Of a stretch of 64,000 nt of DNA, positions 44,959-52,062 are shown one piece after another. The first letter of the stretch is position 1. Each line of letters starts with the position of its first letter. A program made the translations under genes and the position numbers. Below the pieces are notes generated by a model, which was given only the letters and a program-made list of their open reading frames with translations, ran no database searches and was not told where the DNA came from. Origin of the DNA: Bacteroidales bacterium (GTDB taxonomy: Bacteria; Bacteroidota; Bacteroidia; Bacteroidales; JAQUTK01); NCBI GenBank assembly GCA_028709785.1, contig JAQUTK010000001.1, positions 1 to 64,000 of the forward strand, read 5' to 3'.

Positions 44959-45810
44959 ATGGGAGATAAATCGTATACATTTCGTTATCCAACAGTATTA
45001 TCCATTGCCGGTTCAGACAGCAGTGGGGGAGCCGGAATACAGGCTGACCTGAAAACTATATCCGCTTTGGGTGGATATGGATGTACAGCAATAACAGCTA
45101 TTACCGCGCAGAATACACTTGGCGTTTCCGGTATCTGGCCTCTTTCCCAGGAAGCATTAAATGCGCAGATGGATGCTGTATTTTCAGATCTTCATGTGGA
45201 TGCGGTGAAGACAGGAATGCTCCATAATGCGGAAACAGTTCGCTGTGTTGCCGAAGCTATGAAGAGGTATAAGGTGAAGAATCTGGTCGTTGATCCGGTG
45301 TTGGTGGCGACCAGTGGGGATGCTCTTTCGAAAGGAGGAATTGTAGAGGCGATGAGAGAAAGTCTTTTCCCTTTGGCTAAGTTGATCACACCCAATCTGA
45401 AAGAGGCGGAAATACTTTCCGGACAACAGATACAGACATTGGAAGATATGAAACAAGTAGCAGGAATGTTGCTTCAGGTTTCTCTGCAAGGTGTGTTGAT
45501 AAAAGGAGGGCACCTTACCGGTGTCAAGATGATTGATGTGCTTCTGACTGCCGGAATGAAAGAACCACTTTTGCTGGAATCAGACCGGATTGAAACAGAT
45601 AATCTGCATGGCACCGGCTGTACACTTTCGTCTGCGATCGCCACTTTTCTGGCGCGGGGTTTTTCTTTGGAAGAGGCTGTGGTTGAAGCTAAGGAATATG
45701 TATGGCAGGCGATACGTAGCGGAGCGGAAGTATTTACAGGAGAGGGGCACGGACCGCTGAACCACGCATGGCAGCCGGTCAGACAGCAAATAATTGAATT
45801 AAAAGAGTAG
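44959..45810 (+). CDS. thiD: Hydroxymethylpyrimidine/phosphomethylpyrimidine kinase
   Basis: ThiD phosphorylates HMP and HMP-P to HMP-PP for thiamine synthesis. The 283-residue protein has SIAGSDSSGGAGIQADLKT (about 15-33), DPVLVATSGD, ITPNLKEAEIL, VLIKGGHL and the anion-hole/catalytic motif DNLHGTGCTLSSAIA (about 214-228). It is the first gene after the TPP riboswitch and is followed after 3 bases by a thiE-like gene. Confidence 0.95.
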   Translation: MGDKSYTFRYPTVLSIAGSDSSGGAGIQADLKTISALGGYGCTAITAITAQNTLGVSGIWPLSQEALNAQMDAVFSDLHVDAVKTGMLHNAETVRCVAEAMKRYKVKNLVVDPVLVATSGDALSKGGIVEAMRESLFPLAKLITPNLKEAEILSGQQIQTLEDMKQVAGMLLQVSLQGVLIKGGHLTGVKMIDVLLTAGMKEPLLLESDRIETDNLHGTGCTLSSAIATFLARGFSLEEAVVEAKEYVWQAIRSGAEVFTGEGHGPLNHAWQPVRQQIIELKE

Positions 45811-45813
45811 AAG

Positions 45814-48104
<2,291 letters not shown>

Positions 48105-48115
48105 TCAATAGCGAT

Positions 48116-48161
48116 AAAACAAAGCGGGTGGCTCAATAGTCTGAGACACCCGCTTTGTTTT
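48116..48161. terminator. Bidirectional terminator after thiC
   Basis: 15-bp perfect stem (48116-48130 with 48147-48161), 16-base loop, flanked by A-run and T-run; shared with the convergent CxxCH lipoprotein gene. Confidence 0.85.
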
Positions 48162-48167
48162 TATCGT

Positions 48168-49685
48168 TTATTGCTTCAGTGAAACTTTCTTCGCTTCTGA
48201 GTTGTAAATAACATCTTTGAATTGTCCGGGAGTAATTCGGACCGGCTCTACAGTCAGTTCGGGGATATTATATGATTTCAAACGCAGGATGTGTTCCTCC
48301 GGATTCTCAACCGGCAGGATGAAAGGTTTTGTTTCTCCTCCTTTTTCATTGAAATAAGTGAAATAGGGACGGGTATATGAACCGTCGTCCCGTCTGCTGC
48401 TAAAGACGATCCATCGGCCATTGGATGACCAGGAGTGATAGCTATCCACCTCCGGACTGTTGGCTTTTGAGAGCGGACGGATACTTTTGGTTAATAAGTC
48501 AATCACATATAAATCGCTGCTCTTATGCCAGATATGAAATTGTCCGAAGTCACCCAATGTAAAGAGCAGGTATCTGCCATCCGGAGAAACACGGGGAAGG
48601 GTGATGCTCTTGTGTATTTGTGACGCAGGAAATATAACAGCCGGAGTGCCGAATGTATTTGTTTGCATATCATAGGGCATGGCCATCAGATCATAATAGA
48701 TACTGTCGTAGCGGGCAATTGCCCGTTTCCAACCGATCGAATCGTTTCCTTCCAGTAATATTTTTGGTTTGGCAACACAATAGAAAAGCGTGTCGCCTGC
48801 CTTATTCCACGTAGGGAATGTCTCAAACAAGTCTGGCGTCTTACATATCGGAGTCACCTCATCCTTGTCCACATCATAGATGATCAGGTCTGATGCCTCG
48901 TCAAGCACTTCAATCTTTGTTTGTCCGATGAGATGAAACGACTGACCGGTTTTATTGACGGAAAAAGCGACTTTGTTGAGCATCGGGTGCCAGGCCGGAT
49001 AGACGCCGGCAGAGATTGTCGAGTCTGTTTTCAGGTTGACTTTTTTGATCTTATCTCCCTGAACTATCACTGTTCCACCATGAGCCTGGCGAACATGAAA
49101 CAGCATATTTCCCGTCTTTCTGTTTTGATACGTATGGCAATTGATGCAATGATTGTCCTTTATATCATACGCTCTGTTATTTTCATAGATTGGCGTCTCT
49201 TCAAACGTACCGAGGTTTCTCTGGTATATTCCCAGCTGACGATACAGTTCATATCCCGGCTCGATCAACCGGTAGGAGAGATACGGGTCAATCTCTTCTT
49301 TCGCCACATAATTGGCATAACTCTGCCAGCGTGTCCATGCTCCGTTTTTATCTTTAGTGAAGAGGGTAAATTTAATTGCATCCCCTTTACTGGCAGTCAG
49401 CAAAGAGTGCCAGGAAGTAGCAGGAAACTGGATCGTGTTTTTATCATCACCGGCGACAATAATTTCTTTGCCACCTCCGGTTACCTGCACAATAGCCGCC
49501 TCAGCCTCCGTCTTTACTTTGAAGTTCATCGGAGCAATATTGGGCGGAATAGTAAGTAACGTATAGTCAGGCCATATCACGGGCAGTTGCTCTTTATAAG
49601 TAAACTTCTCAGGTATCACCGCTTCCTTCTTGCAGGACAGGCATAGTCCGGACAGCAGTGTCAGATATAGTAAAATTCGTTTCAT
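48168..49685 (-). CDS. TolB/PD40 beta-propeller lipoprotein with a CxxCH haem-type motif
   Basis: The 505-residue protein begins with a lipobox (LSGLCLSCKK, Cys about 18) and has a propeller region with PD40-type strands (VYPAWHPMLNKVAFSVN, TFPTWNKAGDTLFYC, LPRVSPDGRYLLFTLGD, SYHSWSSNGRWIVFSSRR). Inside the first third lies NHCINCHTYQ (about 178-182), a canonical C-x-x-C-H c-type haem attachment site, followed by HVRQAHGG with further histidines. The start codon overlaps the stop of the DUF6057 gene. Role unknown; a redox or metal-binding sensor at the outer surface of the inner membrane is possible. Confidence 0.8.
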   Translation of the reverse strand: MKRILLYLTLLSGLCLSCKKEAVIPEKFTYKEQLPVIWPDYTLLTIPPNIAPMNFKVKTEAEAAIVQVTGGGKEIIVAGDDKNTIQFPATSWHSLLTASKGDAIKFTLFTKDKNGAWTRWQSYANYVAKEEIDPYLSYRLIEPGYELYRQLGIYQRNLGTFEETPIYENNRAYDIKDNHCINCHTYQNRKTGNMLFHVRQAHGGTVIVQGDKIKKVNLKTDSTISAGVYPAWHPMLNKVAFSVNKTGQSFHLIGQTKIEVLDEASDLIIYDVDKDEVTPICKTPDLFETFPTWNKAGDTLFYCVAKPKILLEGNDSIGWKRAIARYDSIYYDLMAMPYDMQTNTFGTPAVIFPASQIHKSITLPRVSPDGRYLLFTLGDFGQFHIWHKSSDLYVIDLLTKSIRPLSKANSPEVDSYHSWSSNGRWIVFSSRRDDGSYTRPYFTYFNEKGGETKPFILPVENPEEHILRLKSYNIPELTVEPVRITPGQFKDVIYNSEAKKVSLKQ

Positions 49686-51283
49686 TAGTTGACTCCGTTT
49701 TTGTTCGTTTCTTTGCCCTCTTGTGGACTGGATACCATGTTGCCAAAGATATAGTAATAAAGAAAATGATTACCGTATTCTTTTCGAAGAACATCTCTTC
49801 CTTTTTCTTTATCATCCATATATTTTGAGATCTCCATCAACAAGTTTTTTGTTCGTTCAGTGACCAGCGGACTGATTGGAAACTGTTTCTCAAATCCGTT
49901 TCCGGAAGAATAACCCTCCAGTGCGATGGCCTCCTGGAAATGCTTTGCGATATGCGATTGACCGCGCAACGCCTGCGTTCTTACCAGAAATGCTTCCAGC
50001 TCTTTCGCATAGAGACATGCCGCCAGTGAAAGATCCAGCGAACGTCTGCTCTTGCCTTTGGTCAGATTGATATAATAACCGATAAAGAGAGGCTCTTTGA
50101 ATGATTGCTCAAAGGTGTTGACGACCGGTTCGAGATCAAAAACAGAAACCAGTTCCGGATCTTTGGAGATCAGTTCCTTGTGAGCAATATAATTTCTGTA
50201 CTTCTCAGTAAAGCCTCGTTGGAAATACATCTTCTCGAGCACAGAAAGATATCGTTCTGCCAGTTCCCATTCCTGGTTCAGCACCGCGCACTTGGTCATC
50301 AGGCGCAATGTAAAAGGAGAAGGCCCTTCCAGTGTCATAAATTCCATCAGATGATGGTATGCAGTATTGATCAGTCCCGAATAAAAACAAGCTTCTGCCG
50401 TATAAAAGTAATCATTTTGCAGGTAAGTGTCATCCGAAATCTTCATGACAAGTTTGGGGTAGTTGTACGGAATCTCAAAGAGTCGTTCTCCCAGTTGATT
50501 GGTATTGACCAAAGCGATGCTTCTGTAAGCAGCTACCGGCCGTGTGGGTGCAGATAGTCCTTCCGTACAGTCAATCACCTTGTCCCATTCCTGCTGTTGG
50601 GTAAAATATTGCATCCGTGTCATCGCTCTCAGATTTTCATCCGGACGGGCAAAGAGAGTCAGCAGAACGATTCCCGTCAAAACAACTCCTCCTCCCAAAC
50701 AGGTTTCTTTCGATGACATTGGGGCGACCTCAGGTCTCTTTTTTCCTGCCACCCGGCGAACGACAGAGATACAGCCCCAACAAAATATGATTACCGATAA
50801 AGAGGCAAGCAGCCATATGAAGAAATCGGACGGATCCACTTCATAGATGAAGTTATAGTTGCACAGACTCATATAAACAAGTATTCCTGCCGGTGGAAGG
50901 TAGCTGGCGAGATGCCACCAGTAAGAGGAATCAAACCGCAGTATCCTTTCAGTCAGTCCTTGCATCAGACAAAGAACAAGCGTGACGAATAAAGTACCCA
51001 GCCATGGGTAGTAGCAAAACTGTAAGAAGAACCGTCCGATGTAAACAGGAATGTTGATCTGCGAGCCTGCCACCTGCTGTAATTCAGAAAATGAACTTGT
51101 AAAGTATGCCAGATCCTGCATTTTCCAGAGTATTTCTCCGTAATAATAGCGGACAAACAGCACTGTAAACACGAGGAAGAAGAGTTGCAGAGATATTCTG
51201 AACCGAGAGAAAGAGAGGGGGAAAATCGTTCGTTTCTCCTTTTTCTTACTTGTTGTGTCTTTACTTTTTGGATGTGTCTTCAT
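49685..51283 (-). CDS. DUF6057 membrane protein with TPR-like soluble C-terminal part
   Basis: The 532-residue protein has five hydrophobic helices in the first 230 residues (for example LQLFFLVFTVLFVRYYYG, WWHLASYLPPAGILVYMSL, FFIWLLASLSVIIFCWGCI). These are followed by a soluble, helix-rich region (about 240-510) with helical hairpins such as WDKVIDCTEGL, YTAEACFYSGLINTAYHHL and WELAERYLSVL that look TPR-like. It resembles DUF6057. It is translationally coupled to the CxxCH lipoprotein (1-base overlap) and overlaps the 76-residue membrane protein by 23 bases, so the three form one operon. Start at 51283 is chosen because longer frames lie within the upstream gene. Confidence 0.72.
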   Translation of the reverse strand: MKTHPKSKDTTSKKKEKRTIFPLSFSRFRISLQLFFLVFTVLFVRYYYGEILWKMQDLAYFTSSFSELQQVAGSQINIPVYIGRFFLQFCYYPWLGTLFVTLVLCLMQGLTERILRFDSSYWWHLASYLPPAGILVYMSLCNYNFIYEVDPSDFFIWLLASLSVIIFCWGCISVVRRVAGKKRPEVAPMSSKETCLGGGVVLTGIVLLTLFARPDENLRAMTRMQYFTQQQEWDKVIDCTEGLSAPTRPVAAYRSIALVNTNQLGERLFEIPYNYPKLVMKISDDTYLQNDYFYTAEACFYSGLINTAYHHLMEFMTLEGPSPFTLRLMTKCAVLNQEWELAERYLSVLEKMYFQRGFTEKYRNYIAHKELISKDPELVSVFDLEPVVNTFEQSFKEPLFIGYYINLTKGKSRRSLDLSLAACLYAKELEAFLVRTQALRGQSHIAKHFQEAIALEGYSSGNGFEKQFPISPLVTERTKNLLMEISKYMDDKEKGRDVLRKEYGNHFLYYYIFGNMVSSPQEGKETNKNGVN

Positions 51284-51491
51284 TGGATATTGATCTGTTC
51301 TTTTCAGCGATTTTCTCTTTCTTACGAAGCACAATCCATAAAAGCAGGATGACCACATAGCAGATTCCTATGATTGCCAGCATCTCTGTTTTTTCTCCGA
51401 CAGGCTGTTTGGGGTAAAATATCAAAGCAATTATTGCCGTATAAATGCAGAGAGCGATCGGAATAACGGTGGACTTCTTAAATCGTTTCAT
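51261..51491 (-). CDS. Small two-helix membrane protein
   Basis: The 76-residue protein (MKRFKKSTVIPIALCIYTAI...) has two membrane segments (about 9-25 and 36-54) and a charged, Lys-rich cytoplasmic tail. It resembles no family I can name, but it begins the three-gene run with DUF6057 and the CxxCH lipoprotein. A TATTTTTG -7 element at 51516-51523 lies 25 bases ahead of the ATG. It is probably a partner subunit of that module. Confidence 0.7.
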   Translation of the reverse strand: MKRFKKSTVIPIALCIYTAIIALIFYPKQPVGEKTEMLAIIGICYVVILLLWIVLRKKEKIAEKNRSISNEDTSKK

Positions 51492-51515
51492 TGTGTGAAG
51501 GTTAATAATTGGTTG

Positions 51516-51523
51516 CAAAAATA
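51516..51523 (-). promoter_or_regulatory. -7 element for the small membrane/DUF6057/CxxCH operon
   Basis: TATTTTTG on the minus strand, 25 bases ahead of the ATG at 51491. Confidence 0.4.
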
Positions 51524-51627: not shown

Positions 51628-52062
51628 ATGCAAAAGATGTTACAAGAGTTCAAGACCTTTGCCATGCGTGGCAACGTCATTGACATGGCTGTCGGTATCA
51701 TTATCGGCGGAGCATTCGGGAAGATCGTCTCTTCGGTTGTCGGAGATATTATTATGCCGGCTGTCGGATTGTTGGTGGGAGGAGTAAACTTTACAGACCT
51801 GAAGATTACGTTGAAAGAACCGGTTACAGATGCGGCGGGAGCGATTACTGCGCCGGCAGTAACCATCAACTACGGACAGTTTTTACAAGTCACATTTGAC
51901 TTTATCATTGTTGCTTTTGCTGTTTTTCTGCTTATCAAACTGATCAATCGTCTGGCAGCGAAAAAGGAAGTAGCTCCAGCGGCACCTCCTGCTCCTCCGG
52001 CAGTGAGTGATGATGTTAAACTGCTGACAGAAATCCGCGACTTGCTGAAAGAAAAGAAATAA
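51628..52062 (+). CDS. mscL: Large-conductance mechanosensitive channel MscL
   Basis: MscL opens under membrane tension and protects against hypo-osmotic shock. The 144-residue protein has the conserved N-terminus [28 protein letters not shown] (amphipathic helix and TM1 pore constriction), a periplasmic loop, TM2 ([18 protein letters not shown]) and a C-terminal Ala/Pro linker with a charged coiled helix. Length is normal. Single-gene transcript bounded by its own promoter and a strong terminator. Confidence 0.97.

What the first reader, a model, noticed from the sequence alone, without database searches (positions are those of the whole stretch)
48168..51523. Three-gene envelope module: small membrane protein, DUF6057 and a CxxCH propeller lipoprotein
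The genes overlap (23 and 1 bases) and share one promoter. The lipoprotein combines a TolB-like propeller with a single c-type haem motif (NHCINCH), which is unusual, and the DUF6057 protein has five helices plus a TPR-like extramembrane domain. A redox- or haem-linked membrane complex is suggested, but no function is known.
Basis: partly seen in the sequence, partly recalled or inferred. Interest (0 to 1): 0.55.

Follow-up and report, generated by a model that had tools for sequence, protein, structure and literature searches.

The report
Propeller lipoprotein with conserved haem-type motif
Gut and rumen bacteria of the Bacteroidales carry a conserved pair of genes for a membrane protein of unknown function and a propeller-shaped lipoprotein whose haem-attachment-like motif is rarely lost, so an uncharacterised and possibly haem-bearing envelope complex is widespread and easy to test.

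Summary
The genes are real. The conserved unit has two genes, not three: DUF6057 plus a lipoprotein with a TolB-like six-bladed propeller and one CxNCH motif. Of 123 distinct full-length lipoprotein relatives fetched, 121 keep CxNCH and 117 have DUF6057 within 300 bp, including two members from another class. The small membrane protein was seen only in the window.

The motif is conserved, and the genome has CcsBA cytochrome c maturation. In 198 genomes of the order, all 20 with the lipoprotein have ResB, against 115 of 178 without it. That does not prove haem: other c-type cytochromes are also present, and the confident AlphaFold model places CxNCH in a propeller strand, not the usual helix.

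Immediate operon neighbours are peptidases, glycoside hydrolases, SusD and NagB; no cytochrome family is among the 25 most frequent.

Best reading: a periplasmic complex attached to polymer-degradation operons. The lipoprotein holds a cofactor, more likely covalent haem c than a non-haem metal, near its propeller channel; DUF6057 anchors it. Haem attachment is unproven.

The parts
51516..51523 (-). Bacteroidetes-type -7 promoter element TATTTTTG, starting 32 nt upstream of the first ATG
   Evidence: consensus match; not shown to function
51261..51491 (-). small membrane protein with two hydrophobic segments, 76 aa; seen only in this window
49685..51283 (-). DUF6057 membrane protein, 532 aa: five TM helices (predicted N-in) and a C-terminal helical-repeat domain predicted periplasmic
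   Evidence: PF19529 189.7 bits; AlphaFold pLDDT 86; charge by loop
50708..50758 (-). place in DUF6057 (residues 176-192) where positions 160-277 of the long-form profile are missing
48168..49685 (-). lipoprotein, 505 aa: lipid Cys18, N-terminal beta domain, six-bladed TolB-like propeller (about residues 130-480)
49134..49148 (-). CxNCH motif C180-I-N-C183-H184
   Evidence: sequence; conservation; in strand 180-187
49089..49097 (-). H197-x-R199, on the strand next to the motif (H197 37 of 40, R199 40 of 40)
   Evidence: strand 190-199
48112..48166 (-). terminator-like hairpin downstream of the lipoprotein gene

Best explanation
A conserved two-gene envelope module. DUF6057 is an inner-membrane protein with a positively charged N-terminus inside and a helical-repeat domain in the periplasm. 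The lipoprotein, lipidated at Cys18 and most likely facing the periplasm, carries a six-bladed TolB-like propeller. Its CxNCH lies on what I read as the innermost strand of the first blade, beside H197 and R199 and near other conserved histidines (H233, H417), and forms a cofactor site at the propeller channel. The likeliest cofactor is a single haem c attached by CcsBA. The complex works as an accessory (sensor, or scaffold for secreted enzymes) of operons that degrade proteins and glycans, not as a link in a respiratory chain. Shown: genes, conservation, pairing, neighbours, maturation system. Predicted: folds and topology. Inferred: haem, complex formation, role.
For: Motif kept in 34 of 36 order-level full-length relatives, 84 of 84 in a set fetched with patterns that do not include the motif, and both other-class members. 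DUF6057 within 300 bp of 117 of 123. Lipid Cys18 in 36 of 36 (A1) and 66 of 67 (A2), with few acidic residues in the five after it (A2: none in 46, one in 20; A1: none in 14, one in 16, two in 6), against one or two in the five of 14 SusD-like neighbours that could be parsed. Charge by loop gives N-in, C-out for DUF6057. Lipoprotein model pLDDT 92.9; TolB Z up to 26.7, hydrazine synthase alpha subunit Z 23.7. ResB in 20 of 20 lipoprotein-bearing genomes against 115 of 178 (p 0.0003); among genomes without NrfA and CCP_MauG, 8 of 8 against 28 of 67 (p 0.002), or 7 of 7 against 22 of 61 if weak NrfA hits are also excluded. CcsA in 20 of 20. Both members without the cysteine pair have also lost H387 and H417, which are absent from only 6 and 4 of 40. 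Operon neighbours: S9 peptidases 9, NagB 7, M60 5, GH30 4, SusD 3 of 98.
Against: The confident model puts CxNCH in a beta strand, whereas haem c needs the two cysteines on one turn (the requirement is established knowledge). The near-invariant Asn in CxNCH is unusual for haem c. Other CcsBA clients exist: a CCP in the own genome, and proteins with CxxCH beside or within about 5 kb of ccsBA in five of the six genomes that had looked free of other cytochromes. H197 is missing in three of 40, two of which keep the cysteines; H387 and H417 are also lost in members that keep the motif, and one of the two motif-losers (L066) has lost several other conserved residues too, so the coupling is weak. 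The genome statistics are not corrected for phylogeny. No complex was modelled.
Confidence: 0.4

Rival explanations
1. CxNCH with H197 binds a non-haem metal (zinc or iron) that stabilises or gates the propeller channel; no haem is attached and the CcsBA association is by-catch of lineages that keep other cytochromes.
For: Motif modelled in a strand with H197 on the neighbouring strand; near-invariant Asn (39 of 40); other CcsBA clients explain CcsBA.
Against: The spacing is exactly CxxCH; in a regular strand C180 and C183 would face opposite sides, which suits a four-ligand site no better; the association with ResB holds in all 20 carrier genomes.
Confidence: 0.33
2. C180 and C183 form a redox-active or structural disulfide in the oxidising periplasm.
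For: The two cysteines are kept or lost together (kept in 38 of 40, both lost in the same two members).
Against: His184 is kept in all 38 members that keep the cysteines and Asn182 in 39 of 40, which a plain disulfide does not need; strand geometry is unfavourable.
Confidence: 0.12
3. The lipoprotein is only a protein-binding propeller like TolB; the motif is a structural relic and the pair works as a scaffold without a cofactor.
For: TolB is the best fold match; two paralogues live without the cysteines, one still beside DUF6057.
Against: Near-absolute conservation over a family that falls to about 31% identity and in another class.
Confidence: 0.1

Closest known systems
TolB of the Tol-Pal system
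   Same: six-bladed propeller fold (VIA Z 26.7, 280 residues at 3.1 A); PD40 repeats; envelope location
   Different: far under the TolB equivalog cut-off (35.1 against 343 bits); lipidated; N-terminal region modelled as mainly beta; carries CxNCH; partner gene is DUF6057
Hydrazine synthase alpha subunit (PDB 5c2v_A) and PF18582 proteins
   Same: propeller of like shape (VIA Z 23.7 over model residues 130-505), above every listed row except the twelve TolB rows; a CxxCH in a propeller-bearing protein, one haem of which has unusual ligation (His to zinc, Tyr to haem; passages of PMC12607021 read)
   Different: the synthase CxxCH (His587) lies outside the aligned chain range 53-431; no profile match to a PF18582 stretch from relatives' genomes (hhalign probability 7%); no HZS_alpha hit in Pfam
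Ordinary single-haem c-type cytochromes
   Same: exported protein with CxxCH in genomes with CcsBA
   Different: no cytochrome c domain hit in Pfam or NCBIfam; motif modelled in a strand, not at a helix
DUF6057 (PF19529)
   Same: member by cut-off
   Different: short form lacking profile positions 160-277 of the long form; no function on record, and no paper in the held library uses the name

Membership tests
DUF6057 (PF19529) | score over the Pfam gathering cut-off | tested here: met
   189.7 against 29.8 bits
c-type cytochrome | conserved CxxCH in an exported protein | tested here: met
   121 of 123 full-length members; lipid Cys18 in 36 of 36 of A1
c-type cytochrome | haem maturation system in the genome | tested here: met
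   own CcsBA; 20 of 20 carrier genomes
c-type cytochrome | motif on a turn or helix that lets both cysteines reach one haem | tested here: inconclusive
   modelled as strand 180-187 with high confidence, but without ligand and without coordinates to measure
c-type cytochrome | covalently bound haem | not testable with these tools
   needs protein
TolB (Tol-Pal) | six-bladed PD40 propeller | tested here: met
   (the blade count is my reading of the strand list)
TolB (Tol-Pal) | TolB equivalog score | tested here: not met
   35.1 against 343.15 bits
Hydrazine synthase alpha | HZS_alpha domain (PF18582) ending at CxxCH | tested here: not met
   no hit at E up to 1; hhalign probability 7%
TPR proteins (DUF6057 C-terminal domain) | TPR superhelix | tested here: inconclusive
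   best VIA Z 9.6 over 75 residues; under 13 is common for helical repeats; only a weak ANAPC3 hit in Pfam, under its cut-off

The most novel reading that the evidence does not exclude
A new class of single-haem c-type protein: haem attached through CxNCH on the innermost strand of a TolB-like propeller, at the mouth of its channel, docked on the periplasmic repeat domain of DUF6057, acting as a haem-based periplasmic sensor or switch for operon-encoded degradation of proteins and glycans in anaerobic Bacteroidales, with paralogues dedicated to different operons (four copies in this genome).
Probability: 0.2. Interest if true: 0.75.

Novelty: new variant of a known kind. Interest (0 to 1): 0.5.

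Why it matters
A family with 556 encoding stretches in one capped scan of GTDB genomes (a gene may be counted more than once), four copies in this genome, no function and no paper in the held library under its Pfam name carries one of the most recognisable cofactor motifs in biology on a fold where it is not expected. If haem is attached, it widens what counts as a c-type cytochrome and gives gut and rumen bacteria an unsuspected periplasmic haem protein tied to polymer use. If a non-haem metal binds instead, it warns against calling cytochromes from CxxCH alone. One expression experiment decides between these.

Tried and rejected
Haem proved by elimination of other clients: rejected. Genomes with the lipoprotein but no hit over the cut-off for NrfA, CCP_MauG or Cytochrome_CBB3 (G018, G078, G108, G111, G112, G177; G112 has a weak NrfA hit, E 7e-4) still had CcsBA, but reading around ccsBA showed other proteins with CxxCH in five of the six: di-haem oxidoreductases by Pfam in G078 and G177, by motif only in G018 and G111, and an 11-motif cytochrome about 5 kb away in G108. 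Only G112 showed none, in 11.6 kb.

A CxxCH census of the own genome: 397 DNA matches, only the first places listed, not usable.

Homology of the motif with hydrazine synthase alpha: not found.

Small protein as the missing piece of DUF6057: it scores 10.8 bits against long-form positions 250-310, more than any of 300 shuffles (201 of which were listed); its reversal scores 4.8. Pfam gives it a weak PF19529 hit, E 0.0073, under the cut-off. The part 278-310 is already present in DUF6057, so I treat it as a likeness of hydrophobic hairpins.

H197 as the distal haem ligand: weakened by members that lack it but keep the cysteines.

DUF6057 against PDB: no Foldseek match with E up to 0.001; VIA lists only TPR-like and other helical pieces. 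PHROGs: nothing. PADLOC: one weak hit, E 0.0019, to 'Orf5', not followed. Weak PF19529 hits in other classes: one example read is a 408-aa membrane protein that I take, by recall, for the FtsW/RodA kind; it was not scanned, and I dropped those hits.

Paper searches for 'DUF6057', 'TolB-like' with Bacteroides and cytochrome c, 'PD40 domain-containing' with Bacteroides, 'cytochrome c biosynthesis protein' with Prevotella, 'TolB-like translocation protein', 'CcsBA' with Bacteroidetes and cytochrome c maturation, and beta-propeller with c-type heme, lipoprotein and Bacteroidetes: 0 papers each. Hydrazine synthase searches listed 2 and 4 papers; only passages of PMC12607021 were read.
Full report
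Observation. The small protein ends 23 bases inside DUF6057, and the DUF6057 stop shares one base with the lipoprotein start. A Bacteroidetes-type -7 element sits at 51516-51523 and a strong hairpin at 48112-48166 follows the lipoprotein gene (z -9.9; the simple terminator scan did not list it), so one transcript is plausible. Upstream lies a divergent ORF of 144 aa (51628-52062), downstream a convergent ORF of 609 aa (46275-48104).

What is conserved. I searched 198 genomes of the order: 33 had some match. I counted 20 as true family carriers (bits above 90; in G148 and G153 the fragment does not reach the motif) and dropped 13 that matched only weakly, in the propeller repeats. The own genome has four copies; the other three are 44-52% identical to the window's. 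Over the union of fetched loci, leaving out two contigs seen twice (L109, L122), there are 123 distinct full-length lipoproteins: 36 from the order search and the window, 83 from the GTDB scan, 4 from the phylum search. Of these 121 have CxNCH and 117 have DUF6057 within 300 bp, with a median gap of 6 bases. Of the six without, two (L052, L101) have DUF6057 318 and 358 bases upstream by the coordinates, two are cut by a contig end on one side (L080, L104), and two (L060, L066) have none detected. Two of the 123 lie in genomes of another class of the phylum and have the same pair with CMNCH. The motif is thus the signature of the family, not an oddity of this window. The patterns used for the GTDB scan did not include the motif, so its 84 of 84 there is not circular.

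The small protein. I examined 117 DUF6057 ORFs of at least 440 aa, the window's included. Of the 116 others, 12 have some ORF of 40-160 codons with a hydrophobic segment ending near the DUF6057 start; only one of these has two segments (L090, low-complexity sequence), and none shows a blastp match to the window's small protein at E up to 10. The sister species' contig ends inside the lipoprotein gene (L070), so conservation in the genus cannot be tested. It is best treated as an add-on.

DUF6057. The family has long (mostly 580-730 aa) and short (mostly 500-560 aa) forms, with intermediates. The window protein is short: a profile of 71 long forms aligns to residues 21-176 and 192-515 and leaves out positions 160-277. 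Loop charges (8 basic in the N-terminal 22 residues, 6 in loop 4, none in loop 3) put the N-terminus inside and the C-terminal domain in the periplasm; the number of helices in the long form was not settled. The model (pLDDT 86) has no significant PDB match; TPR-like proteins give modest scores over 75-144 residues.

Lipoprotein fold. The model has pLDDT 92.9: an N-terminal beta domain, then strands that I read as six blades. TolB fills the first twelve rows (Z 25.2-26.7); the alpha subunit of hydrazine synthase is next (Z 23.7), then a TolB-like protein of Agrobacterium (21.2) and many unrelated propellers (20.7 and lower). Cytochrome cd1 nitrite reductase appears lower in the Foldseek list. 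The CxNCH (180-184) falls in strand 180-187, by my reading the innermost strand of the first blade, next to strand 190-199, which carries H197 and R199. I had no coordinates, so side-chain geometry was not measured.

The cofactor question. For haem: exact CxxCH, an exported lipoprotein, and CcsBA in every carrier (ResB 20 of 20 against 115 of 178, Fisher p 0.0003; without NrfA 12 of 12 against 49 of 98, p 0.0005; without NrfA and CCP_MauG 8 of 8 against 28 of 67, p 0.002; among NrfA-positive genomes 8 of 8 against 66 of 80, p 0.23). CcsA passes its cut-off in 20 of 20. The own genome has no NrfA and one CcsBA frame at C53:215405-217441. Against: the own genome has a cytochrome c peroxidase; the genomes that looked free of other cytochromes mostly are not; the statistics ignore phylogeny; and a beta strand is a poor place for haem c. 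AlphaFold saw no ligand, so the local shape may be wrong, but confidence there is high (84-96 in the blocks 171-200). The two members without the cysteine pair also lack H387 and H417, which hints that these residues work together; but two cases are few, four members lack H387 and two lack H417 while keeping the motif, and L066 has lost other conserved residues as well.

Surroundings. Immediate same-strand neighbours were tallied for 98 of 102 proteins; four large proteins of the cluster whose representative is an M60 peptidase were dropped to fit the size limit: S9 peptidases 9, NagB-type isomerases 7, M60 peptidases 5, GH30 4, class I/II aminotransferases 4, Rid-domain proteins 4, SusD 3, GH97, GH36 and GH43 2 each. 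No cytochrome or maturation family is among the 25 most frequent of 109 families; the other 84 were not shown. In the own genome one paralogue sits between a GH43 and a GH116 gene, another behind VTC, DUF4956 and DUF2490 genes; the window's copy has no same-strand neighbour close by. This favours an accessory role in polymer degradation over electron transfer. A Rid/chorismatase-like protein, under the curated cut-offs, recurs near the pair in six loci, including both other-class ones.

Verdict. A real, widespread, uncharacterised two-gene envelope module with a near-invariant CxNCH on a TolB-like propeller. Haem is the leading but unproven reading (0.4); a non-haem metal is close behind (0.33). 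Novel as a variant; the motif's place on the fold is what deserves a test.

Noticed in passing
L039:6056-7189, L052:12885-14048, L132:7382-8431, L159:4844-6088, L160:10873-12063, L161:1201-2223: A Rid/chorismatase-like protein (FkbO/Hyg5 similarity under the cut-off) recurs near the DUF6057-lipoprotein pair in six loci, including both other-class genomes.
   Followed up: partly
L171:10999-14994, L172:4841-8266: Large proteins with an HZS_alpha domain, two CxxCH motifs and an FGE-sulfatase domain lie right beside ccsBA in two Bacteroidales genomes.
   Followed up: partly
L165:10692-12284, L169:6131-7867, L170:12939-14372: Di-haem oxidoreductases (PF06537) lie beside or near ccsBA in three NrfA-negative genomes.
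   Followed up: partly
L056:8656-10167, L066:9062-10459: Two paralogues have lost the cysteine pair; L066 also has no DUF6057 detected beside it.
   Followed up: partly
L034:4518-7088: The own genome's copy on C18 follows genes with VTC, DUF4956 and DUF2490 domains; the sister species has the same order.
   Followed up: partly
L040:8099-9682: One relative is split by an in-frame TAG (G030), possibly a pseudogene.
   Followed up: no
window 44959-48104: Convergent neighbours look like thiamin biosynthesis genes (ThiD-, ThiE- and ThiC-like, named by recall from the translations, not scanned).
   Followed up: no
window 51628-52062: Divergent 144-aa ORF that looks like a large-conductance mechanosensitive channel (named by recall, not scanned).
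   Followed up: no
window, both strands: TANNTTTG is about twofold enriched in the window (90 against 46 expected, none of 100 shuffles as high), as expected of a Bacteroidetes genome.
   Followed up: yes
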